From a virus, in the IMG/VR virus record IMGVR_UViG_3300007799_000013, positions 1-25,575 of that record: a stretch of 25,575 bases of DNA; one strand, given 5' to 3'. Below are positions 349-25,575 of this stretch, in pieces (the first letter of the stretch is position 1; the number at the start of each line of letters is the position of its first letter). Made by a program: the position numbers and the translations under genes. The notes under the pieces were generated by a model. It was given only the letters and a program-made list of their open reading frames with translations. It did no database searches and was not told the origin of the DNA.

Positions 349-2187
349 ATGCCCGAATATCTGGCCCCCGGCGTCTATATCGAGGAGACTTCCTACCGCG
401 CGAAGTCGATCGAGGGGGTCGCGACCTCCACGGCTGGCTTCGTCGGTCAGGCGCGTTCAGGGCCGGTCACCGGCGCACCGCTTCTGGTGACCTCCTTCGA
501 GGAGTTCCAGCGCTTCTTCGGCGACGCCGCCGACCTCGTGCTGGCGGATGGTCTGCGCAGCAACCAGTTGGCCCATGCCGCGCGACTGTTCTTCGAGAAT
601 GGCGGTCGACGCCTCTATGTCGCACGCGTGTTTCGCGCCACCGGCCCGGAATCGCGCGCGCGCGGCGCCGTGATGTCGATCTCCGGCGCTGACCGGCAGT
701 TGAGCGCGCGCTTCCCCGGCATCAGCGGCAACCTTGTCGTTGGCGCGCAGGCGCTGCGCAGCGGCAACCTGCTGACCGGCACCGGCGCAGCGCGCAGCCT
801 CGCCGGGGTGCGGCCGGGCGACATGGTCGAGAGCTCGAACGTCGCGGCGAAGGACCGGCTGGTGAGCACGGCCTCACCGCTCGACAACGCGGCGCTATGG
901 GCGGTGTCGATGGATCCCACCGGTCGGCCGTTGCTGACCGGCGCGGGCGGGACGCTCGACCTCACCAGCGCGGCGCTGCGCAGCGTACAGAAGGTGACGC
1001 TCAGCCTGCTGGTGCAGCCGAACGGCGATGGCTCCACCGGCAGCCGCAGCGACAGCGTCGGCGGTCTTTCGCCGCACCCGGATTCGGACATGTTCATTGG
1101 ACGGGTGTTGCGGCATGAGGACCCCGTCGCGGGCATCGAGCCGCCCTCCGACCGTTCCAACCGCATCTTCCTCGACCTTGGCGACCCGGCCACCATCCCA
1201 GCGGCGGCGCAACCACGCGCGGGCTTCGCCGCCGCGCTGCTCGGCGCGCTGGTCGCGGGCACGCCGCACCAACTCACCGGCGGGCTCGATGGCACGACGA
1301 TGACGGCCGATGACTTGGCCGGCGCGGGTGCCGGGCACGACGCCACCGGCCTCGTCGCGCTGGAGGCGATCGAGGATATCGCCATCGTCGCGGCGCCAGG
1401 TTCGTCGACGCTGGCCACCGATCAGGCGATGGTGGCGCGCAGCTATCTGATCGGCCATGCCGAGCGCATGCGCTACCGCTTCGCCATCACCGCCGGACCG
1501 CCGGATGCGGACCAGGCGGCGATCCGAGAGGTGCGCGGCCAGTACGACAGCACCTACGCCGCGATGTATTATCCCTGGCTGGTCACGCCCGCCCCCGGCG
1601 GTGCCGGCGGCGAAACCATGCTGCTGAGCCCCGAAGGCGCGGTAGCGGGCGTTTATGCGCGGTCCGATATCGAACGCGGCGTGCACAAGGCGCCGGCGAA
1701 TGAGGTGGTGCGCGGCATCCTTCGCTTCTCCCGCCCGGTCAACAAAGGCGAGCAGGATGTGCTGAACCCGGAAGGCGTGAACTGCCTTCGCTTCTTCGAG
1801 GGCCGCGGCAATCGCATCTGGGGCGCGCGTACCATCAGCAGCGACCCGGAATGGACCTATGTGAACGTACGTCGGCTGTTCATCTACATGGAGCATTCGA
1901 TCGACCGCGGCACGCAATGGGCGGTGTTCGAGCCGAACAACGAGGCGCTGTGGCTGCGCATCCGTCTGACCATCGAGAGTTTTCTCTACGATGTCTGGCG
2001 CACCGGCGCGCTGATGGGGACCAAGCCGTCCGAGGCTTATTTCGTGCGCTGCGACCGCACGACGATGTCGCAGGGCGACCTCGACAACGGCCGGCTGGTC
2101 TGCCTGATCGGCGTGGCGCCGACCAAGCCCGCCGAATACGTCATCTTCCGCATCGGCCAATGGACGGCCGACGCTTCCATCGTCTGA
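349..2187 (+). CDS. Contractile tail sheath protein 1 (eCIS/phage sheath family)
   Basis: This 612-residue protein should form the contractile outer sheath that drives the inner tube forward. The N-terminus has the PGVYIEE motif (residues 7-13) followed by a TAGFVG strand, typical of sheath proteins of phage tails and eCIS. The C-terminal domain (about 480-612) carries the family hallmarks NVRRLF (506-511), FEPNNEALW (527-535), EAYFVRCD (562-569) and AEYVIFR (595-601). The middle (about 100-450) is the more variable, surface-exposed part. The start is supported by a strong ribosome site, and tube 1 follows after 24 bases. Its length is in the usual range for single-gene sheaths. It is probably the main sheath, because it is paired with the better-ribosome-sited tube. 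Function is certain at family level; main versus baseplate-proximal role is inferred. Confidence 0.96.
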   Translation: MPEYLAPGVYIEETSYRAKSIEGVATSTAGFVGQARSGPVTGAPLLVTSFEEFQRFFGDAADLVLADGLRSNQLAHAARLFFENGGRRLYVARVFRATGPESRARGAVMSISGADRQLSARFPGISGNLVVGAQALRSGNLLTGTGAARSLAGVRPGDMVESSNVAAKDRLVSTASPLDNAALWAVSMDPTGRPLLTGAGGTLDLTSAALRSVQKVTLSLLVQPNGDGSTGSRSDSVGGLSPHPDSDMFIGRVLRHEDPVAGIEPPSDRSNRIFLDLGDPATIPAAAQPRAGFAAALLGALVAGTPHQLTGGLDGTTMTADDLAGAGAGHDATGLVALEAIEDIAIVAAPGSSTLATDQAMVARSYLIGHAERMRYRFAITAGPPDADQAAIREVRGQYDSTYAAMYYPWLVTPAPGGAGGETMLLSPEGAVAGVYARSDIERGVHKAPANEVVRGILRFSRPVNKGEQDVLNPEGVNCLRFFEGRGNRIWGARTISSDPEWTYVNVRRLFIYMEHSIDRGTQWAVFEPNNEALWLRIRLTIESFLYDVWRTGALMGTKPSEAYFVRCDRTTMSQGDLDNGRLVCLIGVAPTKPAEYVIFRIGQWTADASIV

Positions 2188-2211: not shown

Positions 2212-2667
2212 ATGGCTGTTCAACGCGACGATCCATATGGCGCCTTCAACTTCAAGGTCACCATCACCCCGGGCTCCGGCACCGAGATCAAGGCCGGCTT
2301 CTCGGACGTCTCGGGCCTCGGCACGGAGGTCACCTACGCCGATTACCGCGTCGGCACCGATCCGGCGAACCGGCCGCGCAAGGTGCCGCTGATGTACAAG
2401 GCGAATGACGTGACGCTGAAGCGCGGCCTCGCCGGCGGCCTGGATTTCTTCCAGTGGATCGACCAGGTCCGCCAGGGCAAGCAGGACGCCAAGGCAACCG
2501 TGGTGATCGAGCTGATGAGCGAGGATCGCGCCGCGGTGGTGATGACGTGGAAGCTCACCAATGCGCGCCCGTCGAAATACACCGGCCCGACTCTCGCCGC
2601 GAAGGGCGGCACCGACGTGGCCATGGAGGAACTCGCCCTGGTCTGCGAGGATATCGGCATGGAGTGA
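2212..2667 (+). CDS. Inner tube protein 1 (T4 gp19-like / eCIS tube family)
   Basis: This 151-residue protein should form the hexameric rings of the rigid inner tube, surrounded by the sheath. The pattern matches the conserved 'phage tail region' tube family: an N-terminal DPYGAFNFKV strand, FSDVSGLGTEV (about residues 31-41), a VTLKRGL motif (about 65-71) followed by FFQWID, and a C-terminal strand ending in EELALVCEDI. Length is typical for Afp1/Pvc1-type tubes. It lies directly after sheath 1 with its own ribosome site. A second, divergent member of the same family is encoded at 4858. Confidence 0.95.
   Translation: MAVQRDDPYGAFNFKVTITPGSGTEIKAGFSDVSGLGTEVTYADYRVGTDPANRPRKVPLMYKANDVTLKRGLAGGLDFFQWIDQVRQGKQDAKATVVIELMSEDRAAVVMTWKLTNARPSKYTGPTLAAKGGTDVAMEELALVCEDIGME
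2661..2664 (+). promoter_or_regulatory. Shine-Dalgarno-like GGAG preceding a 10-codon leader ORF
   Basis: GGAG lies 8 bases before an ATG at 2673. That ATG opens a very short reading frame, not the sheath 2 frame. The site overlaps the last codons of tube 1. See the leader ORF entry at 2673. Confidence 0.45.
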
Positions 2668-2672
2668 CGGGC

Positions 2673-2705
2673 ATGACGAGCCCAGTCGAGATGTGCGCAT
2701 CATGA
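2673..2705 (+). CDS. Possible 10-codon leader ORF coupled to sheath 2
   Basis: ATG 2673 opens a 10-residue frame (MTSPVEMCAS) whose TGA overlaps the sheath 2 ATG as ATGA at 2702-2705. It has a GGAG at suitable distance, while the sheath 2 ATG has no good ribosome site of its own. This could be a leader peptide that delivers ribosomes to sheath 2 by termination-reinitiation, as the ATGA overlaps elsewhere in this operon may do. It may equally be chance in a 34-base gap. No protein function is suggested. Confidence 0.35.
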   Translation: MTSPVEMCAS

Positions 2706-4861
2706 GCGCTTCCTTGCGTGGCGCCGAATTCGCGACAGGCGCCGCATGGCGCTCCGGCCTGCCGCCGGGCGTGTACGAGGCGCGCGCCACGCCGCCCACG
2801 CCGCGACTCGTGCGGCTGGACACCGCGGCGTTCATTGGGCTCGCGCAGCGGGGCCCGCTTAACACGCCGGTGCCGGTGGACAGTGCCGCGGCCTTCACGC
2901 GCACCTTCGGCGCCGCCATCCCGGGCCTGCTGATGCCGCAGGCCATCGCCGCCTTCTTCAATGAGGGTGGCCGCCGCGCCGTCGTCATCCGCTGCATGGA
3001 CCATCGCAACGCGCGCACCGCGCGCCTTGTGCTGCCGGGCGTCACCGTGGCGCACGCAGCGCCGTCGCGCCGCGCCATGCGCATCGCCGCGCGCAATCCA
3101 GGGGCTTGGGGCAATGGCCTGCTGCTGCGGCTGTGCGCGCCGCGCCGCGCCTTCCCGATGGTGCCGGAACTGGTGCGTGTGCCGAAGTCGGGTGGCGGCA
3201 CCATGCTGCGGCGCCGCTACCTGGTGCCGGCGCAGCGCGGCGTGCCCGGCACCACCGTGCGGCTCCCGGGAAAGATACTTGGCGAGGCCGCCTGGCATAT
3301 CGCGCGCGTGACGGAGGTGGAACAGGCCGGTCGCGGCACGGTGCGCCTGACGCTCGAGCCCGCGCTACCGCTCGGCTTCCGGCGGAACGTCTCGGCGCAG
3401 GCCGCGGAGGAAATCCTGCTGCGCCTCGACATCGCGCTCGACGGCGCGGTGCTCGAACGGTGGGATGAGGCTGGGCTGGATTGGCGCCACCCGCGCTTCC
3501 TGCCGCGCCTGCTCGGGCGGCGTGCGGCGTCCGAAGCGCTGCTGCCGGCGCCCATCGACGGCAGTGATCCGGAGACGGAAGCGGGCTCGCCCGACCGCAT
3601 CTGGGGCGATGTGGATGATCCCGCTGGCTCCGACCTGCTGCGCCCGAGCGCGTTGCTCCGCGATGCGTGGCTGCTGCCATCCCACGCCCTGTTGGCAGCG
3701 CCGGAGGGTCTGCTGGTAGCGGGCGCGGACCTCGTGCCGGTGCGCCGTGGCGCGGATGCCGAGGCGACCACGCGGCGCGACGTGTTCCTTACGTCCACCG
3801 AGATCAACCCCGCGCATCGTGCCGGCGATGCCGACCATCGCTTCCTGTTGTTCGGGGATCGCCCGGCGGCGCTGGATGCGTTGGGTGAATGGGATGTGAA
3901 GCAACCCTTCTCGCCGGTGGCGCTGGTGGTGCTGCCGGATCTGCTGCATCCCGCGCCGCCGCGCGACCTGCTGCCTGATCCACCGCCCGAGCCCGGCGCA
4001 CCCTGCTTCGGCGCCTGCCTGCCAGCGCCCGTGCCCGGCGTACGCCGCGCGCAGCCCTATCCCTGGCTCGGCCTCAACATGACCGATCTGCGCGCCGCGC
4101 AGCAGGCGGTGGTGCAGCATTGTGAGGCCGGTGCCACGCGCATCGCGCTTCTCGACCTGCCACCGCTTTTGACACCCGGCGACATCACCGCCTGGCGTCG
4201 CGCGTTGGCCTCCGACCGTGCCGCGCTCTATGCGCCCTGGCTGCTCGCCGCCGATGCGCGCGATGCACGCGCGGCGCCGGTGACGTTGCCGCCCGCCGCT
4301 GCGGCCGCGGGCATCGTGGCGCGGGTCGAGGCGGCCGCAAGACCTTGGGCTGCGCCTGCCAATCAGCAAATTCGTAGTGCCTTCGCGCTGGCCGACGACC
4401 CAGGCCTGCCCGATGCCGGTTTTCTGCATGAGGAACGCGTGGATGTGATCCGGCCGACCGAGCGTGGTCTGATGTTGCTCGGCAGCCGCACCACGTCGCT
4501 CGACCTCGACTGGACGCATATCTCGGTCCGCCGCCTGGTGGATTGGCTGAAGGCGCAGCTGGTGCATGACCTCGCCTTCGCACCGTTCGAACCGAACGGG
4601 CCCGATTTGTGGGACGCGATGGCACGCATCGCCACGCGCCGCGTGCGCGCAGTGTTCGACGCCGGCGCGCTGGCCGGGCGGAGCGCGGCCGAGTCCTTCT
4701 TCGTGCGCTGCGACGAAAGCACGACGCCGCGCAGCGCGCAGGATGCCGGCCAGGCCATCCTGCTGGTCGGTGTGGCACCTGCGGTGCCGGCGGAGTTCAT
4801 CGTCTTCCGCCTGGTCCGCTCGGGTGCCGAGGAGCCGGCGCTGGAGGCTCTCGGGCCATGA
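2702..4861 (+). CDS. Contractile tail sheath protein 2, enlarged variant
   Basis: This 719-residue protein is a second sheath-family member. The N-terminus has GVYEA, then AAFIGLAQRGP, then the strand/helix pattern ending FFNEGGRRAVVIR, which parallels sheath 1. The C-terminal domain repeats the hallmarks ISVRRL, FEPN (residues 629-632) and FFVRCDE (666-672), and ends with PAEFIVFRL. It is about 100 residues longer than sheath 1; the extra length is in the middle (about residues 200-500), which is Pro/Asp-rich and weakly conserved. The frame is open further upstream into tube 1, but ATG 2702 is chosen because sheath homology begins just after it and it overlaps a leader ORF stop. In Afp/PVC systems extra sheath genes contribute baseplate-proximal or minor sheath rings; that role is inferred here. 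It overlaps tube 2 by ATGA. Confidence 0.92.
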   Translation: MSASLRGAEFATGAAWRSGLPPGVYEARATPPTPRLVRLDTAAFIGLAQRGPLNTPVPVDSAAAFTRTFGAAIPGLLMPQAIAAFFNEGGRRAVVIRCMDHRNARTARLVLPGVTVAHAAPSRRAMRIAARNPGAWGNGLLLRLCAPRRAFPMVPELVRVPKSGGGTMLRRRYLVPAQRGVPGTTVRLPGKILGEAAWHIARVTEVEQAGRGTVRLTLEPALPLGFRRNVSAQAAEEILLRLDIALDGAVLERWDEAGLDWRHPRFLPRLLGRRAASEALLPAPIDGSDPETEAGSPDRIWGDVDDPAGSDLLRPSALLRDAWLLPSHALLAAPEGLLVAGADLVPVRRGADAEATTRRDVFLTSTEINPAHRAGDADHRFLLFGDRPAALDALGEWDVKQPFSPVALVVLPDLLHPAPPRDLLPDPPPEPGAPCFGACLPAPVPGVRRAQPYPWLGLNMTDLRAAQQAVVQHCEAGATRIALLDLPPLLTPGDITAWRRALASDRAALYAPWLLAADARDARAAPVTLPPAAAAAGIVARVEAAARPWAAPANQQIRSAFALADDPGLPDAGFLHEERVDVIRPTERGLMLLGSRTTSLDLDWTHISVRRLVDWLKAQLVHDLAFAPFEPNGPDLWDAMARIATRRVRAVFDAGALAGRSAAESFFVRCDESTTPRSAQDAGQAILLVGVAPAVPAEFIVFRLVRSGAEEPALEALGP

Positions 4862-5352
4862 GCGACAACTTCCTCTCGCACTTCAACTTCAGCGTGGTGA
4901 TCGACGTCTCCGGCTATGGCGGTGACGAGGGGCTGGCGCAGGGCGGGCCGAATGCCGCGCGCGGCGCCTTCAGCGAGGTGACGGGGCTTGAACTCAACAT
5001 CGAGATGACGGCGTTGCGCGAAGGCGGCTTCAACGCCGGCGTGCGGCAACTGCCCGGCAAGGCGACCTCGCCGGTGCTGATCCTGAAGCGCGGTGTGACC
5101 CTGGATGACGCTTTTTGGGCGTGGATCCGCCGCTGCACCGACGGCACCTTCCCGCTACCCTACGTCTCCGGTGCCATCACCGTATTCGGGCCGGAGGGCG
5201 CGGCAGCCAAGCCGAAGGCGAGCTGGAACTTCGTCAACGGGATCGTCACCAAGGTGAAGTCCGCCGACCTCAACGCGCATGAGGCGCGCGCCATGGCGAT
5301 CGAGGAACTGCACATCGCGCATGAAGGGCTGCTGCGGGGGGCCACGGCATGA
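4858..5352 (+). CDS. Inner tube protein 2 (gp19-like, probably baseplate-proximal)
   Basis: This 164-residue protein is the same tube family as the 2212 gene: an FLSHFNFSVVID strand, AFSEVTGLELNIEM, a VLILKRGVT motif followed by FWAWIRR, and a C-terminal strand ending in AIEELHIAHEGL. It has a short Gly/Asn-rich insertion after the first strand (about residues 19-36) that tube 1 lacks. Its ATG overlaps the stop of sheath 2 and its own stop overlaps the next gene, so translation is probably coupled. In Afp and PVC, a second tube protein (Afp5/Pvc5) forms the first ring on the spike. Position next to the Afp7-like gene fits that role, by analogy only. Confidence 0.93.
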   Translation: MSDNFLSHFNFSVVIDVSGYGGDEGLAQGGPNAARGAFSEVTGLELNIEMTALREGGFNAGVRQLPGKATSPVLILKRGVTLDDAFWAWIRRCTDGTFPLPYVSGAITVFGPEGAAAKPKASWNFVNGIVTKVKSADLNAHEARAMAIEELHIAHEGLLRGATA

Positions 5353-6671: not shown

Positions 6672-6860
6672 ATGCCGGTGATCATCGACACTGTATCCAC
6701 CGACGTCATCGTCGATCCCGCCGCGGGCGGTGCGCGCGGCGGCGGCGGTGAGGCCGATGCCGCACCTGAGACGCAGGCCGATGACCTGCGCGCCGTGATC
6801 CGCGAGATCCTGCGCGAGGAACTGGAACGCGCGCTCCGCCTGGCCTTGCCGCAGCGATGA
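6672..6860 (+). CDS. Small DUF5908-like eCIS protein
   Basis: A 62-residue protein with a short N-terminal strand (PVIIDTVSTDVIV), a Gly-rich loop (residues 19-26) and a charged C-terminal helix (DDLRAVIREILREELERALR). DUF5908 proteins are about 55-60 residues, begin with a similar MPI/V strand, end in a helix and sit between the Afp7-like and gpD-like genes of eCIS loci. Size, architecture and position all fit, but residue identity is low, so the family call is tentative. It has a good ribosome site, a 3-base gap after the previous stop and an ATGA overlap with the hub gene. That and the regular codon use argue it is a real gene. Molecular role unknown; probably a baseplate or assembly accessory. 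Confidence 0.75.
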   Translation: MPVIIDTVSTDVIVDPAAGGARGGGGEADAAPETQADDLRAVIREILREELERALRLALPQR

Positions 6861-7945
6861 ACGACGGCCCGCCCCTTCTCGTCTCGGCCCGTCCCGTCCT
6901 GTCGATCGACGGGCAGGAGAACACGGCGCTCGGCCGCGACCTGATCCGGCTGGAGACGATGGAGGATTCGCAGGGCGTGGCGACGCTCGAAGCCGTGTTC
7001 CTGAACTTCGGCCAGACCGAGCGCGCGAGCGCGCCTGGCTATGTGCATTTCGACCGCGCGGCGATCGACCTCGGCAAGCGCATCACCGTGGCCTTTGGCA
7101 CGTCTGGCACGCCACAGACCGTGTTCGAGGGCACGATCAATGCGATCGGCGCGTCGTATCCGGAATCGCGACCGCCGGAACTCACCATCCTGGCCGAGGA
7201 TGCGCTGGCAAAGCTGCGCCTGGCGCGGCGTTCACGCACCTTCGAGAACGCGACGGACGCCGACATCCTCCGCCGCATCCTCGACGATGCCGGGCTGCGC
7301 GCCGATGTGGACGCCACCGGGGCCAACCACGTGCAGCGCTGGCAGGTTGGGCAGAGCGAGCTCGACCTGCTGCGCGAACGTGCGGATGCGCTGGATGCGC
7401 GCATCCTGCTGAAGGACGGCGCAGTGACGGCGCGGGCGCGGGCCGATGGCGCACGACCCATTCCACTGACCCACCAGAACGAGCTGATCCGCTTCGATGT
7501 GCGGGCCGACCTCGCGCAGCAGCGCACCAAGGTGCGCGTGCATGGCTGGGATGTCTCGGCCAAGGCGGCGATCCACGAGGAAGCCGGGCCCGACATCGCG
7601 CGCGCCGTGGCCGAGGCGCAGGGCCGCACCGGCCCGCAAGCGCTGCAGCAGGCGCTGGGCGAGGCGCCGGAGGACCTGCACCTGGAAATGCCGGCGACGA
7701 CCGAGGAGGCGCGCAACCTAGCGGAGGCACGCATGAAGCAGCGCGCGCGCGCCTTCATCCGCGGCACCGGCACCACGCGTGGAACGCCGGCGCTGCGTGC
7801 CGGCGGGCGCGCCGAGTTGCTCGACCTCGGGCCCTGGTTCTCCGGCATCTACGAGGTGACGCGCGTGCGCCACAGCTTCGACCAGACCAGCGGTTTCCGT
7901 ACCGAATTCGCCGCCTGCCGCGCGGCGCTGGAGCAGGGCGCATGA
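6857..7945 (+). CDS. Spike hub protein, phage late control gpD family
   Basis: This 362-residue protein should form the trimeric hub that adapts the sixfold tube to the spike (T4 gp27 / P2 gpD / N-terminal half of Afp8 or VgrG). Visible features are an N-terminal beta domain (VSARPVLSIDGQ, then LEAVFLNFG and ITVAFG), an EGTINAIG strand, and the classic ATDADILRRILDDAGL helix (about residues 134-149). After it comes the WQVGQSELDLLRERAD segment that precedes the second barrel. The C-terminus (about 300-362) returns to a barrel with the YEVTRVRHSFD motif of the family. In Afp/PVC and VgrG this module is fused to the spike; here the needle is a separate gene at 7942 with an ATGA overlap, as in many phages and some other CIS. 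Confidence 0.92.
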   Translation: MNDGPPLLVSARPVLSIDGQENTALGRDLIRLETMEDSQGVATLEAVFLNFGQTERASAPGYVHFDRAAIDLGKRITVAFGTSGTPQTVFEGTINAIGASYPESRPPELTILAEDALAKLRLARRSRTFENATDADILRRILDDAGLRADVDATGANHVQRWQVGQSELDLLRERADALDARILLKDGAVTARARADGARPIPLTHQNELIRFDVRADLAQQRTKVRVHGWDVSAKAAIHEEAGPDIARAVAEAQGRTGPQALQQALGEAPEDLHLEMPATTEEARNLAEARMKQRARAFIRGTGTTRGTPALRAGGRAELLDLGPWFSGIYEVTRVRHSFDQTSGFRTEFAACRAALEQGA

Positions 7946-8646
7946 GCCTCCTCGACCCCATCGCGACGGTCGTGCCCTTCCCTCGCCCGCGGCTCTACGG
8001 CGTCTATCCCGCGATCGTGCGCGACGTGCAGGACCCCGACAGCCAGGGCCGGGTGAAGGTGGAATTGCCCTTCGTTGCCTCCGACGACGCCGCGCCGGCA
8101 CAGGCCTGGGCGCGGCTGGCCACGATGATGGCGGGCGCGGAGCGCGGCAGCTGGTTCATCCCCGAGGTGGAGGACGAGGTGCTGGTGGCGTTCACCGCCG
8201 GTGACCCGAGCCGCCCGATCGTGCTCGGCGCGCTCTGGAATGGCAGCGACGCTCCGCCCGAGACCATGGACAGCGACAACAACAGGCGCTCGATCACCTC
8301 GCGCTCGGGCCACCGGCTGCTTTTCGACGATAGCGCGGGCGCCGAAAAGCTGCTGATCGAGACTCAGGGAGGCCATAAATTGACGCTGGATGATGCGTCC
8401 GGCGGCACTGTGACTCTGGAACATTCGAGCGGCGCCAAGATCACCATCGATGTCAGCGGCAAGGTGGAGATAACAGCGAACAGCAAGGTTGTGATCAACG
8501 CCGCGGCGCAGCTCTCGGTTACCGCCGGCATGGTCACTGTGGATGCCGGGATGAGCAAGTTCTCCGGCGTGGTGAAGTGCGACACGCTGATCACCAACGC
8601 GGTCATCAGTTCCAGCTACACGCCCGGCGCAGGGAATGTCTGGTGA
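7942..8646 (+). CDS. Spike/needle protein, baseplate assembly gpV family (OB fold plus beta-helix)
   Basis: This 234-residue protein should form the trimeric membrane-piercing needle. Residues about 18-105 are the gp5/gpV OB-fold (VYPAIVRDVQDPDSQGRVKVELPF, WARLATMMAG, SWFIPEVEDEVLVAF, PIVLGALWNG), all diagnostic. Residues about 115-215 alternate hydrophobic and polar residues in short strands rich in Gly, Ser, Thr and Val (LIETQGGHKLTLDD, KITIDVSGKVEITA), as in the beta-helical spike of T4 gp5. It ends in SYTPGAGNVW, a terminus I associate with this family. No lysozyme domain is present, as usual for eCIS. No PAAR tip is fused or encoded next to it. Local G+C falls in the beta-helix part because of its Lys/Asn/Ile/Thr content. 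Confidence 0.94.
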   Translation: MSLLDPIATVVPFPRPRLYGVYPAIVRDVQDPDSQGRVKVELPFVASDDAAPAQAWARLATMMAGAERGSWFIPEVEDEVLVAFTAGDPSRPIVLGALWNGSDAPPETMDSDNNRRSITSRSGHRLLFDDSAGAEKLLIETQGGHKLTLDDASGGTVTLEHSSGAKITIDVSGKVEITANSKVVINAAAQLSVTAGMVTVDAGMSKFSGVVKCDTLITNAVISSSYTPGAGNVW

Positions 8647-11171
8647 TGTCGGTGTCGCTCGCCCCCGCTGCGCTCAAACCCCGCCGACGCCGGCTGATCG
8701 TCCCCGCGCATCGCAGCGAGGCGCGCGAGACGCTGGCCATCGCCACGCCGTTTTTTCTGCGTGCCGGCACGGACCCGGCACCCGCCGCGCCGCCGCTGCT
8801 GAGCTTCGATGGCGATGCCTTCATGGAAGATCTCGCCGCGGCGGTGGCGGATCCGGCGAAATGGCCGAAGCTGCTGCCGTGGCGCGACTGGGCGGAACCG
8901 CCGCAGGGCATGCTCGATGCGAATGGCGCCGCGCGCTACGACACGCTCGCGGTCGCGCGCGGCGCGCCCGTGGCGATCGAGCGCGACCCTGCCTTGCCGG
9001 CGGGCGGTGATGGCGTGCCGGCGGGCACGCCGCCCTGGCTGCGCAAGCTTTACCTGCCGCTGCATCAGCGCTTCACCTTCGTCGCCTTCGACGTCGCCTG
9101 CCAGCGCGCCGGCTGGCCGCGCCTCGCGCGCTCTCGCGTGCTCGGCAGTGGCGCGGTGGTGCGCCGGCTCCGGCCCGGCGCGAACGAGGCGTGGGAGGAT
9201 TGGATCAGCGCCGATGGCAAACGCGGCATCTGGATCGCGCTGGCGCGGGCCGTATCCACCCCCAACCCGGTGGTGCTGCCACGCGTGGCAGCACCGCTCG
9301 ACCCCGAGGCGCTGACCGCCGCCGATTTCCAGGGCATCGAGGGCAGCGTGCGCGCGCGCCTTGGTCTGGTTGCGGGGGCTACGCTGCCGATGGCGCTCGA
9401 CAGTGCGAGGCTCACGCTGCTGCCGCCCGATTTCGCGGCCGGCGCGGCGGCGCAGCACTGCACGCTGCATGGCTATGTGCCGGTGTTCTCCGCGGCCGAG
9501 CAGGCCACGGACATCGTGGCCAGCACCGCGGCGTCGCTCACCACGGAGTTGCGCGCGAAGGCAACGGCGGCGGTGCAGGCGACAGCCGCGGCGGCGCCGG
9601 CGCTGCGCAGCCGGGTAGAGCCGGCGCTGAACACGCTGCTCGGGCTGACCGTGTTGCCGCCCCGGCCGGCGTCGAGCGCGGTGGCGACGGCCTGGATGGC
9701 GCTCGGCGCCTTCAACAGCGGCGACATCACCATCACCGGCGGGCGCGCCAACATCGAGCAGGCGCTGGATGCCGTGCTGCGCCGTCTGCTGGCCGAGGGC
9801 TGGGCCATGCTGGCGCCAAATTCCGCGCTGGATTCGGACGCGCTGCTGGCCGCCGGCGCGGCGCCCGATACCGCCGCCGGCTGGCTCGATCGCGCGCAGG
9901 CCGTGCTGCGCGCCGCGGCCAATGGCGGCGGCGTGATTGGTCATGAATGGACGCGGCGCAGCTTCGGGAGCCTCGCGGGGTCCTGGCGCATCCTGCTCGA
10001 CAATCGCCTGAACGACCTTGCCGACCGAATCCGCGCTGGCGTGCCACTGCCGCGGGTGACGCCTGCCGTGCCGGTCGGCGTGTCCGACGACGATGCGCAG
10101 CTTCTGCTGGCCTGCTGCGTGCTGCGATTGCGGCGGCTGCGCGTGGCGCTGGTGGTCTCGCTGCGGCAGCAGATGTTCGGCGACCAGCAGGCCGCGACGC
10201 TGACGGTGCAGCGCAACTCGGTGCCGCAGGTGACGGCTGGCGCGCTGGGGCAGGAGATCATGGCCTCGCTCGGCCTGGAATCCTGGCGCGGCACGGCGCA
10301 GGAGCCTGCCTGGCCGCCGCTGACAACGCAGGCGCCCCGCATCGGCGGCGACCAGCGCGCGGCCAATGCGCATGCCGCGGCGCTGATCCTGGAAGACGCC
10401 TTCGCCGATTTCGAGGCCGCCGGCGCCGAGGCCGGCAGCGTGTTCGAGGAGGAGCAGGATGCGCGGCTACGCGCCGCCAACGCCGCGCTGCTCGCCCGCC
10501 TTGCGCTTGCCGACCCTGCCAGCCAACCCTACAACGCGCTGCGTCGCCACGGCCTGGAGCCGCGCGAACAGCCGGCGCGCGGCCTGCTCGCGTTGCCCGG
10601 CCCGCGTCCCGACAGCGCGGCGCTGAACATCGCGGCCAGCGCCGTCGCGGCGCGTTTCAGCGCACCCAAGGCGGTAGTCGCCGCGCGGGACACGGCGCGC
10701 GTGCAGCGCCTGCGCTACGATCACAACAGCCTTTATGCCATCTGGTGCTGGGTGCGCGTTGCCGGCCGCGATGCCTGCGAGCCGCCGCAGATCATCTGGA
10801 CGCAGCGCACCGAACCGTTCTCGATCGCCGAGCCGACCGACGTGCTCGGTGCCCGCCCGGCCACCATCCAGTTGCCTGACATCGGCCGGTTGATCCGCGA
10901 CATCCCGCGCATCGCCAAGGCCAAGGCAAGGCCCTTCGCCGGCTTCGCCGCCCCGCCCAACAGCAGCTACATCACCGGCGAGGAAGCGGCCGATACGCAG
11001 CGCGCCTGGGGCATCGCCTGGGTGTGTTCCTTCGGCATCCCGGTGCTGACGATCTGCGCGTACATCCTGTTCAGCATCATATTCAGCATCCTGATCATCC
11101 TGCCCGGCTTCTTCTGGATGCTGCTGCTGAAATTCTGCATCCCCATCCCCGTCCCGAAGAAATCCCCATGA
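8646..11171 (+). CDS. Large eCIS-linked protein of unknown fold with C-terminal membrane segment
   Basis: An 841-residue protein with no domain I can name. The frame is open upstream to 8577, but ATG 8646 overlaps the needle stop (TGATG) and gives a sensible N-terminus with a basic PRRRRL patch. Residues about 130-175 contain LHQRFTFVAFDVACQRAGWPR. The middle is Ala/Leu-rich and helical, and residues about 690-760 are Arg-rich and aromatic. Residues about 790-833 are almost uninterrupted hydrophobic (starting IAWVCSFGIPVLTICAY), long enough for two membrane passes or a hairpin. The protein ends with the basic tail PVPKKSP. A membrane protein inside a baseplate operon recalls CisA of Streptomyces CIS or the anchors of cyanobacterial thylakoid CIS, but homology to either is not established. 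I recall unnamed eCIS-cluster proteins with similar ends. ATGA overlap with the gp25 gene. Confidence 0.85.
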   Translation: MSVSLAPAALKPRRRRLIVPAHRSEARETLAIATPFFLRAGTDPAPAAPPLLSFDGDAFMEDLAAAVADPAKWPKLLPWRDWAEPPQGMLDANGAARYDTLAVARGAPVAIERDPALPAGGDGVPAGTPPWLRKLYLPLHQRFTFVAFDVACQRAGWPRLARSRVLGSGAVVRRLRPGANEAWEDWISADGKRGIWIALARAVSTPNPVVLPRVAAPLDPEALTAADFQGIEGSVRARLGLVAGATLPMALDSARLTLLPPDFAAGAAAQHCTLHGYVPVFSAAEQATDIVASTAASLTTELRAKATAAVQATAAAAPALRSRVEPALNTLLGLTVLPPRPASSAVATAWMALGAFNSGDITITGGRANIEQALDAVLRRLLAEGWAMLAPNSALDSDALLAAGAAPDTAAGWLDRAQAVLRAAANGGGVIGHEWTRRSFGSLAGSWRILLDNRLNDLADRIRAGVPLPRVTPAVPVGVSDDDAQLLLACCVLRLRRLRVALVVSLRQQMFGDQQAATLTVQRNSVPQVTAGALGQEIMASLGLESWRGTAQEPAWPPLTTQAPRIGGDQRAANAHAAALILEDAFADFEAAGAEAGSVFEEEQDARLRAANAALLARLALADPASQPYNALRRHGLEPREQPARGLLALPGPRPDSAALNIAASAVAARFSAPKAVVAARDTARVQRLRYDHNSLYAIWCWVRVAGRDACEPPQIIWTQRTEPFSIAEPTDVLGARPATIQLPDIGRLIRDIPRIAKAKARPFAGFAAPPNSSYITGEEAADTQRAWGIAWVCSFGIPVLTICAYILFSIIFSILIILPGFFWMLLLKFCIPIPVPKKSP
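11013..11145 (+). other. Encoded hydrophobic membrane segment at the end of the 841-residue protein
   Basis: This stretch encodes residues about 790-833, dominated by Ile, Leu, Phe, Val, Cys and Trp. A Pro-Gly pair near the centre (LPGFF) could mark a hairpin turn between two helices. The T-rich second codon positions make the local base composition visibly less GC-rich than the flanks. It is the only convincing membrane segment in the operon. Confidence 0.8.
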
Positions 11172-11560
11172 GCGGCACGGCACCCCTCCTGCGCGGCATC
11201 CGGCTGCCGCTGTGCGGCCCGACTGGCTGGGCCTGGACCGAAGACCCTGAGGCGGCCGACCAGGCGGTGCGCGCCGTGCTGCTGACCGAGCCCGGCGAGC
11301 GTATCGGCCGGCCGCTGTTCGGCGCCGGGCTCAGGCGCTTCTTGTTCCAGCCGAACAGCCTCGAGACCCGCACGCGCCTTCGCCTCGCGATCGAGGAGGC
11401 GATGCGCCGCGACCTGCCGCGGCTGACGCTGGAAGGTGTCGATGTCGCGAGCGTGGCGCGGGAGCCGGAGCGGCTGGATATCGCGGTGCGCTTCCGCATC
11501 CCCGGCGGCAGCGCGCCGCGCCTCGTCGAAACCGGGCTTTCCCTGCAAGGAGGGACCTAG
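11168..11560 (+). CDS. Baseplate wedge protein, gp25/gpW family
   Basis: This 130-residue protein should link the baseplate wedge to the first sheath ring (T4 gp25, Afp9, TssE). Visible family features are a start in GIRLPL, LLTEPGERIGRPLFGAGLRRFLF (about residues 39-61; the central EPGER motif is diagnostic), and a helix LRLAIEEAMRRDLPRL followed by a final beta strand pair. The open frame runs back into the previous gene. ATG 11168 is chosen because it gives the typical family length and overlaps the previous stop as ATGA. The gpJ-like gene follows after 3 bases. Confidence 0.95.
   Translation: MSGTAPLLRGIRLPLCGPTGWAWTEDPEAADQAVRAVLLTEPGERIGRPLFGAGLRRFLFQPNSLETRTRLRLAIEEAMRRDLPRLTLEGVDVASVAREPERLDIAVRFRIPGGSAPRLVETGLSLQGGT
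11547..11553 (+). promoter_or_regulatory. Strong Shine-Dalgarno site for the gpJ-like baseplate gene
   Basis: AAGGAGG sits 10 bases before ATG 11564, inside the end of the gp25 gene. It supports the chosen start and gives the gpJ-like gene independent initiation. Confidence 0.75.
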
Positions 11561-13834: not shown

Positions 13835-16215
13835 GCATGCCCTCCCCTGGTTTCCTGCACGTGACGGGCCGGGCCATGTGGCGGCACTGCGACCATGCGG
13901 CGACTCGGATCGAAGGCCTGCCGGCGCGCGTGACGCTGGCCACCGCGGCGGCGGTGGATGCGGCGCGGCCGGCTGCCCATCTCGCAGCCTGGCGTGCGGC
14001 GATGGGGGCCGCGGTGCTGTTCGACTGCCCGCCCGACCTCTGCGAATGCGGCACGGTGGTGCTGGCCGATCCGCGGCAAGGCGTCTTTGCGCTGCAAGGC
14101 GGTACCTGGGCGGCGCTGGCCCTGCCAGTCGCGCCGGAGTCGCCAACGGGACCACTCGATTTCGCGCCGGTGCTGCCGCCCGCGCCCGCGCGGCCGCCGA
14201 ACGGCGTGGCGCGCGATCCCGCCGGCCGGCTCTGGCTGCTCGATGCCGTCCCGCCGGCATTGCGCCTGCTCGGCCACGAACTCCGCCCCGCCGCGGTGCT
14301 GCGGCTGCCCGCCGATGCGCGGCCTTTCGCCGTGGCCTGCACGCGCTGGGGCGTGGTGGTCGCCGATGCCGCCACGCCCCGCGTCTTCGTGCACGAATGG
14401 GGTGGCGAGTGGCAGGCCCATACGTTGCCCGGTGCCGCACTCTCGCTGGCCGGCGATGCGCGCTTCGGCGCTGCGGTGGTGGTGCTCGAGGGCCGACGCA
14501 TCGCCGTGCTGCGCGGCCCCGCCCCGCCCGCCATTTTTGCTCTGCCCGCATTGCGGACACCCTTGCAAGCCGTGATGACCGCCGAGAATGTCGTGCTGAT
14601 CGCCGATGTCGCTGGCACGCCGGGCGCCAAGCTGCCGACCTGGCTTGCCGAATTCACGCTGGCCCCCGACGGGCCGGAAGCCGAGCGCGGCTTCGCGGTG
14701 CGCGGCTTCGATGGCCGCGCGCTGTGGCTCGACGCGCAGGGCCATGTGCAGGCCAGCACCGTGAAGGGCGCGCGCGCCGCCCATGCGCGCGAAAGCCCGC
14801 TTGCCACCGCCGGCACGGTGGAAACCTTCGCGCTGGACTCCGGTGTTTTCGCCTGCGTCTGGCACCGTGTTTTCGTCGATGCCTGCGTGCCGCCCGGTAC
14901 CAGCGTCGTATTGGAAGCCCGCACCGCGGACACGCTGCCGCCGCGCGACCTGCAACGGGATGCGCGCCCACCTGCCGATCTTGCGGCGCCCGTGCCGCCC
15001 GACCCTGCTTGGCCGCCGCTCGGCACGCTGGCGCCCGAGGAGGAGATCGCCTGGTCGCCGATCGGCCTGATGGAGTCGCGCCCGGCCTATGCCGACACGC
15101 CGCTGCCGCCCTTCCAATCGGCGATCGCGAGCGAGGATCCACTACCCGCTGGGGCGCGAGGCCAAGCCATGCCGCCACCCGACGCGATGGTGACGCTGGA
15201 GGGCGTGGTGAAGGCGCCGCCAGGCCGCTGGCTTTGGCTGCGGCTTCGCCTCGCGGGCACCGAGCGCCGCGCACCTGGCGTATTCGCGCTGCGCGCCACC
15301 TGCCCGCGCGCCTCCCTGCTCGACCTGCTGCCAGCCTATTGGCGCGGCGATCCGGTGGCCGCGGACGCAACCGACCGGTCGCTCGCGCTGTTCGAAGGCT
15401 TCACCACCGAGATCGACCAGCGCATCACGGCGCTACGGCACATGCTGTCGGCGCACACCGCGCCGCCGGAAGCGCTGGAATGGCTCGGCGGTTTCCTCGC
15501 CCTCACCTTCGATGCACGTGTGACGGAGGCGGTGCGCCGCAGCCTGCTGGCCGAGATCGCCACGCTGTGGCGCAGCCGCGGCACCATCCCAGGGCTTACA
15601 CGGCTGCTCAGCATCCTGGCAGAGGCGCCGGTGCAGATTATCGAGGCCTATCGCCTGCGGCGCGAGAGCACCGCCATCATCGGCGCGGCAGAGTGGGGCA
15701 TCCTCGGGCCGGGCCTCCAGCTCGGCGACAATGAGGGACCGGAGAGCACGTCCTCCGAGCCCTGGGAGCAGACGCTGGAAGCGCAGCAGCTTGCGCTGAT
15801 GCTGCGCCGCGCCGCGGTGCGTGCCGAGGGCGGCACGCCATGCCCGGCCGCCGATCCACCGCCGCCGCTCGACCCCGACCCCGTCATCGCTTTCCATCGC
15901 CGCTTCGCGCATCGCTTCACCGTGGTAATTCCCGCCCATCGTAGCGATGCGCTTGCCGCCGTGCTGGACCTCGCGGTGGAGACCAACAAGCCGGCGCACA
16001 CGCTGCATGCGCTGTGCTGGCTCGATGCCGGGTTCCGGCTCGGCGAGGGCAGCCTCATCGGCATCGCGCCGATCGGCGGACACCCGGAATTCGCCCCTGC
16101 CATCCTCGATTCGCGCGCCCCGCTCGGTGCCGGCCACACGCTTGGCCGCGCGCCACCGGAAGATCGCTGGATGATCGGTGCCACGCGTCATTCCCAGGAC
16201 AGGAGTCGTTGCTGA
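13828..16215 (+). CDS. gpI-type tail/baseplate protein (TIGR02242-like) with propeller-like N-terminal domain
   Basis: The last third of this 795-residue protein matches the 'phage tail protein' family of eCIS and related loci: LLDLLPAYWRG (from about residue 497), LFEGFTTEIDQRI, then PPEALEWLGGFLAL and RRSLLAEIATLWRSRGTIPGLTRLLSI. P2 gpI and T4 gp7/gp53-like partners act with gpJ in the wedge. The first 430 or so residues are different: repeated strand units with PPNGVARDPAGRLWLLDA (about 123-140) and several similar strand-turn patterns that suggest an NHL- or WD-like propeller, a predicted surface or docking domain. Cys-rich spots (CPPDLCECG near residue 67) may bind metal. ATG 13828 overlaps the gpJ stop; ATG 13837 is an alternative start three codons later. 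The stop overlaps the next start as TGATG. Confidence 0.88.
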   Translation: MLSMPSPGFLHVTGRAMWRHCDHAATRIEGLPARVTLATAAAVDAARPAAHLAAWRAAMGAAVLFDCPPDLCECGTVVLADPRQGVFALQGGTWAALALPVAPESPTGPLDFAPVLPPAPARPPNGVARDPAGRLWLLDAVPPALRLLGHELRPAAVLRLPADARPFAVACTRWGVVVADAATPRVFVHEWGGEWQAHTLPGAALSLAGDARFGAAVVVLEGRRIAVLRGPAPPAIFALPALRTPLQAVMTAENVVLIADVAGTPGAKLPTWLAEFTLAPDGPEAERGFAVRGFDGRALWLDAQGHVQASTVKGARAAHARESPLATAGTVETFALDSGVFACVWHRVFVDACVPPGTSVVLEARTADTLPPRDLQRDARPPADLAAPVPPDPAWPPLGTLAPEEEIAWSPIGLMESRPAYADTPLPPFQSAIASEDPLPAGARGQAMPPPDAMVTLEGVVKAPPGRWLWLRLRLAGTERRAPGVFALRATCPRASLLDLLPAYWRGDPVAADATDRSLALFEGFTTEIDQRITALRHMLSAHTAPPEALEWLGGFLALTFDARVTEAVRRSLLAEIATLWRSRGTIPGLTRLLSILAEAPVQIIEAYRLRRESTAIIGAAEWGILGPGLQLGDNEGPESTSSEPWEQTLEAQQLALMLRRAAVRAEGGTPCPAADPPPPLDPDPVIAFHRRFAHRFTVVIPAHRSDALAAVLDLAVETNKPAHTLHALCWLDAGFRLGEGSLIGIAPIGGHPEFAPAILDSRAPLGAGHTLGRAPPEDRWMIGATRHSQDRSRC

Positions 16216-17426
16216 TGAGCGACACGGCACTGCTCTTCGAGCCCCTCGAAGGCGCCGATCCGGCGCGGCCCGGCGATCCCTTCGCGCGGCTCCGCTACCA
16301 ATACGGGCAGTTGCTCGGCGCCGAGGATTTCTCGGCCGAGCAACGCTATTTCGTGCTGCGGGAGCGGCTGCTGAACGCCGTGTTGCACGGCACCGGCACC
16401 GTCTGGGGCCTGCGTGTCACGGCGCGCGAGGACGCCACGACGAACGCCGTGCAACTGGTATGCGCCCCCGGCCTCGCGATCGATGCCTTGGGCCGGTTGA
16501 TCCATGTCGAGCAGGAGGTCTGCCTCGATGTCACCGGCCTCGCGCTGGCGCCTTTCTGGGTCGATCTCACGGCGCCGCCGGGCGCGGCGGCGGAGGCGCG
16601 AACGCGGCGCGCCTACATCGTCCTGTCGTACCGCGCCTGCCTGGACGGCCAGGTGCCGGCCATTGCGCCGCCCTGCTCCGACAGCGGCGATGCGCTGGCC
16701 TATTCGCGCGTGCTGGATCGCTGGCGGCTCTGCCTCGCCGCCGAACCGCCGCCGGATCCGCATCCGCTGGCGCGGGACTGGACGCGCTTTGCGGCCACCT
16801 TCGCGGCCCCTGGGGATCTGCGCGCCACGCTGCTCGACTTCATCCTGACGCCACCCGCCGCACTCGCGCGCCTGTGGTCGAACGGCGATGATGCGGGGCT
16901 GCTGCTGGCGACCATCGATCTCGACCCGGTGGGCGAGCCGGCCGAGCGCACCAAGCTCGCAACCGTGCCGGACAATGCGGTGCGTGCGCTGCTGCCGGAT
17001 GTGCAGACGGTGGCCAGCATCGCCACCGGGCTGCGGCTGGCGGGCGCGCCGGCCGATGCCGGCTTCCGGCTGCTCGGCGTCACGGCCGCGTCCGATGCCG
17101 GGCGCATCGTGCTGACCGCGCGCTTCACCGCCACGCCAGAGGCAACCAGCCGGACGGCCGACAACATCCGCGTCTTCCGTTTCGATCCTGCTACGGGTTG
17201 GGCCGATGTCACGGTCGTCGGCTGGGCGGTGCTCGGCCCTGAGACGCTGATCACGCTCGGCGAGGATTGGACCGCCGAGACCACCTGGCAATTGCTGCTG
17301 ACCGGTGCCGGGCCGAAGCCGCTGATGGATGCCGCGGCAAGGCCGTTGGCCGGCATGGCCGGTGATGCCGCGCCGGCGCCCGCCCAGGGCCGCGATGTTG
17401 CCCTCGTCTCCCACTTCACGCCGTGA
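16215..17426 (+). CDS. eCIS baseplate-associated protein with paired N-terminal module (first copy)
   Basis: A 403-residue protein without a named domain that I can assign securely. The N-terminus has a recognisable eCIS-cluster module: YGQLLGAEDF (residues 30-39), EQRYF, GTGTVWGLRV (59-68) and PGLAIDALGRLI (85-96). The same pattern recurs in the next gene, so the two are probably paralogous in this part. Residues about 110-130 continue in beta strands. The rest is mixed, with a strand-rich C-terminal half (FRLLGVTAAS, RIVLTARF, NIRVFRFDP). It starts with TGATG on the previous stop. Placed after gpI it may be a peripheral baseplate or fibre-network component; that is inference from position. 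No signal peptide or membrane segment is visible. Confidence 0.82.
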   Translation: MSDTALLFEPLEGADPARPGDPFARLRYQYGQLLGAEDFSAEQRYFVLRERLLNAVLHGTGTVWGLRVTAREDATTNAVQLVCAPGLAIDALGRLIHVEQEVCLDVTGLALAPFWVDLTAPPGAAAEARTRRAYIVLSYRACLDGQVPAIAPPCSDSGDALAYSRVLDRWRLCLAAEPPPDPHPLARDWTRFAATFAAPGDLRATLLDFILTPPAALARLWSNGDDAGLLLATIDLDPVGEPAERTKLATVPDNAVRALLPDVQTVASIATGLRLAGAPADAGFRLLGVTAASDAGRIVLTARFTATPEATSRTADNIRVFRFDPATGWADVTVVGWAVLGPETLITLGEDWTAETTWQLLLTGAGPKPLMDAAARPLAGMAGDAAPAPAQGRDVALVSHFTP

Positions 17427-17431
17427 AGGAG
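17425..17431 (+). promoter_or_regulatory. Shine-Dalgarno site for the 970-residue gene
   Basis: GAAGGAG overlaps the previous stop codon and lies 8 bases before ATG 17440. It decides this start over the longer upstream open frame that reaches back to 17329. Confidence 0.75.
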
Positions 17432-17439
17432 CCGCGCCG

Positions 17440-24713: not shown

Positions 24714-24928
24714 CAACGGGTCAAGGTGCGCTGATGGCTGTTTGCGGATGGCAGCCGTGATCGTGGCGGCGATGTCCTTCACGCGCCAGATCAGGGCGTT
24801 CGCTTCGGTGGCTTCGATGCTGCCGGCGAACCATATCTGGCGTGGGTCGTCGAGCAACTCGCGCAGTGCGCAGCACTCGCCTCGCCGCCTGCGATCAGCC
24901 GTCGGGCGGCGGGCGAATCCAGCAGGCG
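24714..24928. other. Right boundary of the eCIS operon; no intact gene
   Basis: About 215 bases between the last CIS gene and the tail-tube remnant. No plus-strand frame reads as protein here: a nine-codon frame at 24733 ends at once, and the frame that later becomes the tail tube has low-quality Arg/Ser-rich codons. A weak inverted repeat (GGCTG 24736-24740 with CAGCC 24752-24756) has an 11-base loop and no T-tract, so I see no intrinsic terminator. The minus strand carries the remnant listed separately. Confidence 0.6.
24726..24925 (-). pseudogene. Probable minus-strand gene remnant with internal frameshift, truncated at both ends
   Basis: Read on the minus strand, the stretch below about 24,857 gives a natural-looking chain (LLDDPRQIWFAGSIEATEA, then NALIWRVKDIAATITAAIRK) with strong G/C preference at third positions. 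The part above about 24,870 continues convincingly in a different frame (LLDSPAARRLIAGGEAS), so a one- or two-base indel near 24,860-24,880 would join them. Neither end has a start or stop at a natural place: on the left the frame runs into the Ala-rich CIS gene, on the right it meets the tail-tube homology. I do not recognise the family. Chance antisense coding is the alternative, given the GC content. Confidence 0.35.
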
Positions 24929-25575
24929 GTGGTACCGGTGGACCTGATCAACATCGGCCACTGGCTGCGGCTGCTGCTGGGCGCGCCCACCACCACCGGC
25001 ACGACCAACTTCATCCACACCTTCGCCTCGGGCGCGGCGTCGCTGCCGAGCAATGCGATGGAGATCGGCTATCCGGACGTGCCGTCCTTCGACGTTTGCA
25101 CCGGAGTGCGGGCGGACACGATGGAGATGGACTTCACGCCGACCGGCGCTGCGACCGCGACCTTCGGGCTGCTCGGTCAGGGATCGGCCAGGACAGGCGC
25201 GACCTCCGGCGGCGCGCCGATCTCGGCCGCCTACACCGCCTTCAACAAGGTTCAGGGATCTATCACACGCACTGGATCCCCGCTGGCACAGGTCACCGGC
25301 GCGCGGCTCACCTATGCCAACGGCATGGAGGCTGTCCGCACCATCCGCGCCGATCGCCGCGTCGAGGGCGTGGATCCTGGCATCGCGCGCTGCACCGGCC
25401 AGATAACCGTGCGCTTCGAGAACACCACGCTGCTCGCTCAGGCGCAGGCCGGCACCTCGGCGGAATTCGCCATGGCCTTCACAATCGATGCCAACCGCAG
25501 CCTGACCATCACGCTGCACGAGGTGTATCTGGCGCTGGCCAAAACCCCGATCGAGGGGCCGGCGGGGGTGGAGGC
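24929..25575 (+). pseudogene. Siphophage-type tail tube protein, N-terminus missing, running off the window
   Basis: The frame is open from 24,761 to the window end but reads as protein only from about 24,929 (VVPVDLINIGHWLRLLLG, then APTTTGTTNFIHTFASGA). This matches the middle and C-terminal parts of the long-tailed-phage tail tube family (Phage_tube_2 type). Further matching segments are MEIGYPDVPSFDVCTGVRAD, ADRRVEGVDPGIARCTGQ and a strand ending in HEVYLALAKTP. Members usually have some 70-80 residues before this point; nothing like that is present upstream in any plus-strand frame, and no ATG with a ribosome site precedes it. The C-terminal end lies beyond the window. It is unrelated to the contractile tube genes at 2212 and 4858 and probably comes from a decayed prophage. 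Confidence 0.7.

What the first reader, a model, noticed from the sequence alone, without database searches (positions are those of the whole stretch)
8646..11171. 841-residue baseplate-operon protein ends in a long hydrophobic membrane segment
Residues about 790-833 form an almost continuous hydrophobic run with a central Pro-Gly, followed by a basic tail. It lies between the needle and gp25 genes, where a free extracellular particle would not need a membrane protein. It could tether the particle to the host inner membrane or mediate firing there, by analogy with Streptomyces CisA or cyanobacterial thylakoid CIS anchors. This would change the expected mode of action from released to cell-associated.
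Basis: partly seen in the sequence, partly recalled or inferred. Interest (0 to 1): 0.8.

Follow-up and report, generated by a model that had tools for sequence, protein, structure and literature searches.

The report
Membrane-tailed protein of bacterial injection machine
A gene inside a phage-tail-like bacterial syringe cluster encodes a large unnamed protein, shared by many distantly related bacteria, whose greasy C-terminal tail is strongly preserved and probably ties the syringe tip to a membrane, perhaps that of the cell that makes it.

Summary
Window 8646-11171 encodes an 841-aa protein with an uncharged hydrophobic stretch (residues 787-828) and a Lys-rich end. It belongs to a widespread family unnamed in the Pfam, NCBIfam, PHROGs and PADLOC scans run, with no PDB sequence relative. 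Of 72 non-identical members, 70 start within 200 nt of a spike gene, one at 263 nt, one is cut by a contig end. The tail (CSxSIPIxTICA...F.W.P..xxCFP.P..K) is narrowly the best-conserved stretch: median pairwise identity 66% against 35% for the rest. In 919 sampled genomes the family occurs in 16, all among the 83 with a CIS tube gene. In 23 of 24 clusters it is the only conserved ORF with a membrane-like segment. No PAAR spike-tip gene was found in its clusters; systems without it put PAAR, another protein, or nothing in that slot. AlphaFold of a relative (pLDDT 85.5) gives a folded body, a lower-confidence linker and one tail helix.

Best reading: a tail-anchored spike or baseplate adaptor holding the particle at the producer's inner membrane; it would work like CisA, but homology was not found. 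Which membrane it enters is unproven; 'cell-associated' is plausible, not shown.

The parts
7942..8646 (+). spike (phage baseplate assembly protein V-like, PF04717); stop overlaps the start of the membrane-tailed gene by one base
8646..11171 (+). membrane-tailed baseplate-slot protein, 841 aa, member of an unnamed CIS family
8733..9245 (+). N-terminal mostly beta region (residues about 30-200), contains the conserved KLYxPxHQRF..VA..xxC stretch
   Evidence: AF2 pLDDT block means 69-91, but 37-47 in residues 81-130
9492..10706 (+). variable, helical middle region (residues about 283-687)
   Evidence: low conservation, low to moderate confidence
10731..10880 (+). conserved C-terminal strand region (residues 696-745); may complete a sandwich with the N-terminal region (weak Ig-like alignments spanning 29-730)
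11004..11129 (+). 42-residue uncharged hydrophobic run (787-828); AF2 helix at 800-818
11025..11150 (+). conserved tail motif, residues 794-835 (CSxxIPxxTICA ... F.W ... C.P.P)
11130..11168 (+). short basic C-terminal end (residues 829-841)
11168..11560 (+). gp25-like baseplate wedge protein
6857..7945 (+). separate baseplate hub (Phage_GPD, PF05954)
349..2187 (+). tail sheath; closest solved relatives are haloarchaeal T6SS and Streptomyces CIS sheaths

Best explanation
The protein is a structural adaptor of a contractile injection system (CIS). Its folded body is made beside the spike and binds the spike or baseplate in place of, or near, the PAAR tip. A linker of about 40-80 residues leads to a conserved C-terminal membrane helix with a short basic end, like a tail-anchored protein. 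It most likely sits in the producing cell's cytoplasmic membrane and recruits or holds the loaded particle there so that the baseplate can fire. Shown by computation: the family, the conserved membrane-type tail, the fixed slot after the spike, co-occurrence with CIS genes, being the only conserved membrane-like ORF of the stretches examined, and no PAAR found in those stretches. Inferred: spike or baseplate binding, orientation, the identity of the membrane, and a role in firing.
For: Spike gene upstream in 71 of 72 members, within 200 nt in 70. Tail median pairwise identity 0.66 against 0.35 for the body, tail above body in 1591 of 1596 pairs; for the window protein in 56 of 56. Tail 3.31 bits per column, next best 42-residue window 3.13, body mean 1.42. 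A805 and F822 57/57, P799 and T802 56/57, C794 and C831 54/57. 16 family genomes of 919, all within the 83 with CIS_tube; hypergeometric p 5e-18, or 8e-14 without the 4 genomes used as centres. Only conserved ORF with a TM-like segment in 23 of 24 clusters and in the window. AF2 of relative L017: pLDDT 85.5, pTM 0.73, lower-confidence stretch 551-630, helix 635-664. No PAAR match in any of the 72 members' loci, and none near the family gene in 20 of 20 family genomes searched, 15 of which have no PAAR at all (20 of the 22 family genomes with handles were given). Nearest solved sheaths 9ezm and 8bky, nearest baseplate J protein 9gtp: deposited by papers on the haloarchaeal T6SS and on Streptomyces CIS, both cell-associated.
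Against: The C-terminal flank is positive (184 K/R, 14 D/E) and the N-terminal flank negative (77 K/R, 172 D/E) in the 69 of 72 members where both flanks could be located; by the positive-inside rule this disfavours a plain N-in/C-out tail anchor. The tail is conserved more than a simple anchor would seem to need. Kinship differs by gene: the spike's best solved match is 7aef of AlgoCIS, an extracellular system (9.5e-28; Streptomyces 9gtr 2.6e-21), and the tube's best are 9r9h (system not identified) and AlgoCIS, with the Streptomyces tube far down. The window's nearest relative, L068, has a marginal segment (summed score +0.72). Sister systems without the protein exist. 6 of 59 clusters carry collagen-like ORFs that could be target-binding fibres. 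I found no localisation data for any member.
Confidence: 0.45

Rival explanations
1. Particle-borne tip protein: the protein rides on the spike in place of PAAR in a released particle, and its hydrophobic tail inserts into the target cell's membrane on or after contraction, helping penetration or forming a passage.
For: It sits in the spike-gp25 slot where PAAR, or in one case a DUF2169 protein, sits in other systems. No PAAR found in its clusters. Tail residues are specifically conserved and the C-terminal end is basic. 6 of 59 clusters have collagen-like ORFs. The window spike is nearest to that of AlgoCIS, a released system.
Against: A free particle would need to shield a long greasy tail. 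No chaperone family known for such tails (Eag/DUF1795, recalled) appeared among the window ORFs scanned with Pfam. The sheath and baseplate J protein are nearest to cell-associated systems.
Confidence: 0.29
2. Assembly or cap factor: the tail is a hydrophobic plug or oligomerisation helix buried in the baseplate or around the spike, and never enters a bilayer.
For: Sequence-specific conservation with a helical periodicity in its first half (peak at 100 degrees, p 0.06, post hoc); constant slot among structural genes.
Against: Very low summed insertion score (-2.1 to -5.5 in the 23 clusters; recalled scale); in the L017 model the tail helix follows a lower-confidence stretch rather than joining the confident core.
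Confidence: 0.15
3. Release factor or effector: the tail perturbs the producer's membrane (release) or is an injected membrane toxin.
For: Hydrophobic tail with a basic end; TM-containing putative CIS effectors toxic on expression are reported for Streptomyces (PMC10066040, passages).
Against: Fixed structural position with conserved body motifs and tail, not variable as effectors usually are. No family match in the scans run.
Confidence: 0.06

Closest known systems
CisA (Sco4242) of Streptomyces coelicolor CIS
   Same: A membrane protein encoded in a CIS cluster and needed for firing; from the CIS whose sheath and baseplate J protein are among the nearest solved relatives of the window's.
   Different: [quoted passage not shown] PMC12237407 (sections 6-7) does not find it in particles, whereas PMC10020575 (passages) reports it in purified particles by mass spectrometry. 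Here the body is folded, the TM-like segment is C-terminal in 66 of 72 members, and the gene is between spike and gp25.
Cis13 of the Anabaena thylakoid-anchored CIS
   Same: A C-terminal transmembrane helix on a baseplate-bound CIS protein (PMC8894136, passages).
   Different: Cis13 is a fibre-like trimer; no PDB sequence matches the family profiles in a related way.
Hbor_38620 of the haloarchaeal T6SS
   Same: Putative membrane anchor tied to a CIS lineage whose sheath (9ezm) is the best solved match of the window's.
   Different: Six predicted TM helices and a roughly 150-residue cytoplasmic domain, encoded upstream of the core cluster (PMC11566945, passages).
PAAR spike-tip proteins (PF05488)
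   Same: Occupy the same gene slot after the spike in other CIS.
   Different: The three PAAR ORFs used here are 89-99 aa; no Pfam hit, PAAR or other, for the family.

Membership tests
Membrane-tailed CIS family described here (72 members) | Sequence similarity over body and tail | tested here: met
   Window protein is 20-27% identical to 51 of the 52 other rows of A2 and 34% to L068; its hit with the A1 profile is by construction, as it was a row of A1. Tail identity median 0.42 over 56 pairs.
Membrane-tailed CIS family described here (72 members) | Gene directly after the spike | tested here: met
   70 of 72 within 200 nt, L033 at 263 nt, L006 cut by a contig end; window overlap one base
Membrane-tailed CIS family described here (72 members) | Conserved hydrophobic tail with CS..IP..T.CA, F.W and C.P | tested here: met
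CisA family | Mid-protein TM followed by a conserved periplasmic C-terminal domain | tested here: not met
   Tail is terminal in the window protein and in 66 of 72 members; L063-L067 and L077 have an extension of roughly 115 aa
CisA family | Sequence similarity to CisA | tested here: inconclusive
   CisA-like ORFs of L093 and L094, assigned by position and architecture only, match no ORF of the family loci, but they do not match each other by phmmer either, so the test is weak. Sco4242 itself was not fetched.
PAAR tip proteins | PF05488 match | tested here: not met
   No Pfam family for the window protein, 7 relatives, or the Rhodococcus member
CIS membrane anchors, as a functional class | Localises to a membrane and tethers particles | not testable with these tools
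   Needs fractionation, fusions and cryo-tomography
T6SS TssK | Significant fold match | tested here: inconclusive
   Best Foldseek row 5m30_A, E 0.098, prob 0.07, rmsd 22.1: not usable

The most novel reading that the evidence does not exclude
A large, multi-phylum branch of what is catalogued as 'extracellular' CIS is a membrane-docked machine: a tail-anchored protein replaces the PAAR tip, plugs the spike into the producer's inner membrane and gates firing, giving a further independent solution to membrane docking beside T6SS, CisA, Cis13 and the haloarchaeal anchor.
Probability: 0.25. Interest if true: 0.85.

Novelty: new variant of a known kind. Interest (0 to 1): 0.62.

Why it matters
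Mode of action (released, cytoplasmic or membrane-docked) has been shown for only a few CIS, and even related systems differ (PMC12998442, passages). A single marker gene with a conserved membrane tail, found in genomes titled as Pseudomonadota, Acidobacteria, Chloroflexales, Polyangiaceae and Nitriliruptoraceae members, would let mode of action be predicted from sequence and tested by cutting about 45 residues. It also names a candidate spike-tip partner for systems in which I found no PAAR. It may have been missed because it has no Pfam domain: the survey of eCIS core genes in PMC8213781 looked for domains, and its main text has no 'transmembrane' or 'hydrophobic' (passages).

Tried and rejected
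Single-sequence scans with the window protein, its tail and the sheath found no relative in viral contigs; the spike found four, which opened the family. tblastn of the window protein in plasmids and phages: no match; of one relative in plasmids and another in phages: no match, although Rhodococcus WP_160093747.1 was later found on a plasmid by position and profile.

Helical hairpin (two short helices around the Pro-Gly): considered because both flanks could then be cytoplasmic; not favoured, since AF2 gives one helix in the window (800-818) and one long helix in L017 (635-664), though the last 20 residues are low-confidence in the window model. Fold matches: none at E 0.001 or better; the 50 rows shown in each second look are at Z under 8, many antibody-like or helical. 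TssK resemblance rejected. The idea that the anchor replaces target-binding fibres is not upheld: 6 of 59 loci with at least 7 kb downstream carry collagen-like ORFs; 13 loci were too short to judge. PAAR absence is not specific to family clusters: several comparators have neither. The window's own genome is only this 25,575-base record, so the host could not be checked.

Literature: searches; passages of nine papers and sections of one of them; nothing I saw describes this protein. The held library lacks most subscription papers, and the 2019 eCIS catalogue (PMC6899500) is not held.

Full report
WHAT IS THERE. The ORF at 8646-11171 is real: 841 codons, ATG overlapping the spike stop by one base, stop overlapping the gp25 start. 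The window is a CIS cluster: sheath, tube, second sheath, second tube, CIS_tube protein, GPD hub, spike, this protein, gp25, baseplate J protein, tail protein I, two further conserved ORFs, a weak tape-measure-like ORF and an AAA ATPase. It comes from a record classed as a virus, but no capsid or packaging family was hit among the ORFs I scanned. Residues 787-828 carry no charged, amide or histidine residue; 0 of 2000 shuffles reached that length.

FAMILY. The spike led to four relatives, each with a comparable tail on the next gene. An alignment of five (A1) found 63 genome loci and 9 viral-contig loci; these scans start from short peptide patterns, so counts are lower bounds. After removing the window copy, one fragment and four duplicates, 72 members remain. 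Record titles name Burkholderiales and other Pseudomonadota, Pyrinomonadaceae and other Acidobacteria, Chloroflexales, Polyangiaceae and Nitriliruptoraceae (Myxococcaceae only for the dropped fragment). Rhodococcus opacus WP_160093747.1, annotated 'hypothetical protein', is a further member. No match in Pfam (window protein and 8 relatives), NCBIfam (window and 6), PADLOC (window and 2) or PHROGs (window only). Profile A1 finds no PDB sequence up to E 10; A2 finds 19 with best E 0.56, farnesyltransferase and other unrelated proteins.

CONSERVATION. With 57 sequences under 80% identical, the tail (794-835) averages 3.31 bits per column, the next best 42-residue windows, around 710-770, reach 3.13, and the body averages 1.42; single 20-residue bins of the body can exceed tail bins (721-740: 3.35). 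Pairwise, the tail beats the body in 1591 of 1596 pairs (median 0.66 against 0.35; identity expected from tail composition alone 0.116), and in 56 of 56 pairs with the window protein (0.42 against 0.22). Six members (L063-L067, L077) carry a roughly 115-residue extension after the tail; 66 of 72 end with it. The window's own tail is divergent: the consensus Asp817, Arg823 and Pro826 are Ile, Phe and Leu, and it has the extra Pro-Gly.

LINK TO INJECTION SYSTEMS. The spike lies within 200 nt upstream in 70 of 72; L033 starts 263 nt after it and L006 is at a contig end. The next labelled gene downstream was gp25 in 37 and the baseplate J protein in 32 (in most of these at a distance that leaves room for a gp25 too divergent for phmmer); 3 had none in reach. 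Across four samples (321, 198, 199 and 201 genomes: class of G007, phyla of G004, G001 and G002) CIS_tube was found at E 0.001 or better in 24, 15, 10 and 34 (over the curated cut-off in 22, 14, 10 and 32) and the family in 8, 1, 4 and 3, always within the CIS_tube set. The family searches scored at most 3 or 6 candidates per genome, so misses are possible. Without the four genomes used as centres, 12 of 12 still fall within 79 of 915. The family thus marks a subset (16 of 83) of CIS. One tube-positive genome of the same lineage, G138, has its spike running off the contig end, so absence there cannot be judged.

THE SLOT. In comparators without the family the spike is followed by PAAR and then gp25 (L095, L096, L112), by PAAR with no gp25 detected (L097), by gp25 at once (L091, L094, L114; L092 after an ORF labelled as hub), by a 252-aa protein without a TM-like segment (L111), or by a DUF2169 protein (L113). 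phmmer with three PAAR queries matched only L093 (weakly), L095, L096, L097 and L112, none of the 72 members' loci. In 20 of the 22 family genomes with handles, searched with PF05488 (G002 and G316 were not given), 15 have none; in the other five the PAARs lie on other contigs or, in G252, about 50 kb away in a second CIS that has PAAR in this very slot. The family therefore occupies the PAAR slot, though some systems have neither.

MEMBRANE CHARACTER. In 23 of 24 representative clusters the family protein is the only plus-strand ORF conserved in at least four other loci that has a 19-residue segment with summed insertion score below 0; in L068 none passes. The stretch examined reaches about 10 kb either side, so distant cluster genes were not tested. 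In the window no other of 18 scored ORFs comes near (next best +2.73). The scale values are recalled. Flank charges put the basic end towards the cytoplasm if the positive-inside rule holds, which leaves topology open; bacterial tail-anchored proteins such as T6SS TssL (recalled) show that C-terminal anchors are used in related machines.

STRUCTURE. The window model is poor overall (pLDDT 56.9, pTM 0.47) but gives a fairly confident N-terminal region, C-terminal strands 696-727 and a helix 800-818. The L017 model is good (85.5, 0.73): body to about 550, a stretch 551-630 with block means 47-79 and short helices, then helix 635-664. No fold match reached significance.

MODE OF ACTION. The window sheath's best solved matches are 9ezm (E 4.5e-107), deposited by the haloarchaeal T6SS paper, and 8bky (5.5e-103), deposited by the Streptomyces paper; the baseplate J protein's best is 9gtp (6.2e-56), also Streptomyces. 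The haloarchaeal T6SS sits at the cytoplasmic membrane (PMC11566945, passages). Streptomyces CIS contraction and function depend on the membrane protein CisA (PMC12237407, abstract and sections 6-7), which that paper does not find in particles, while PMC10020575 (passages) does by mass spectrometry. Against this, the window spike is nearest to 7aef of AlgoCIS, an extracellular CIS (9.5e-28), and the tube to 9r9h (not identified) and AlgoCIS 7adz. Roseiflexus CIS, in the Streptomyces lineage, lie free in the cytoplasm and lack close cisA homologues (PMC12998442, passages). The nearest relatives therefore lean towards, but do not prove, a cell-associated mode.

VERDICT. A real, conserved, unnamed CIS component that would work like known membrane adaptors without being shown to be related to any. 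Adaptor in the producer's membrane 0.45; target-membrane tip 0.29; buried plug 0.15; release or effector 0.06.

Noticed in passing
window 24761-25573 (+): Right end, beyond the CIS genes, encodes a phage tail tube protein of another kind (PF18906, E 6e-35; phrog_290), cut by the window end: a separate phage element or other gene beside the CIS cluster.
   Followed up: partly
window 349-2187 and 2561-4861 (+): Two different sheath genes and two gp19-type tube genes (2212-2667; within 4609-5352); plasmid clusters L110, L111, L113 and L114 also have two annotated sheaths.
   Followed up: partly
window 6857-8646 (+): Hub (GPD) and spike are separate genes here, whereas comparators L091, L095 and L096 have one ORF of 588-596 aa that matches the spike, presumably fused; 49 of 71 family loci show a separate GPD ORF just upstream by similarity.
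   Followed up: partly
L111 26022-26780; L113 26419-27357: The spike-gp25 slot holds different proteins in sister systems: a 252-aa protein without TM-like segment in Roseomonas and a DUF2169 protein in Cereibacter. It looks like an exchangeable accessory slot.
   Followed up: partly
window 16014-17426 and 17329-20352 (+): Two conserved ORFs without Pfam or PHROG match (motifs LRYQYGQLLG and NWFNGRFLT seen); similar ORFs in 21 and 8 of 23 other representative loci.
   Followed up: no
L063-L067, L077: Sub-branch in which the membrane tail is followed by a roughly 115-residue C-terminal extension; useful for testing topology.
   Followed up: no
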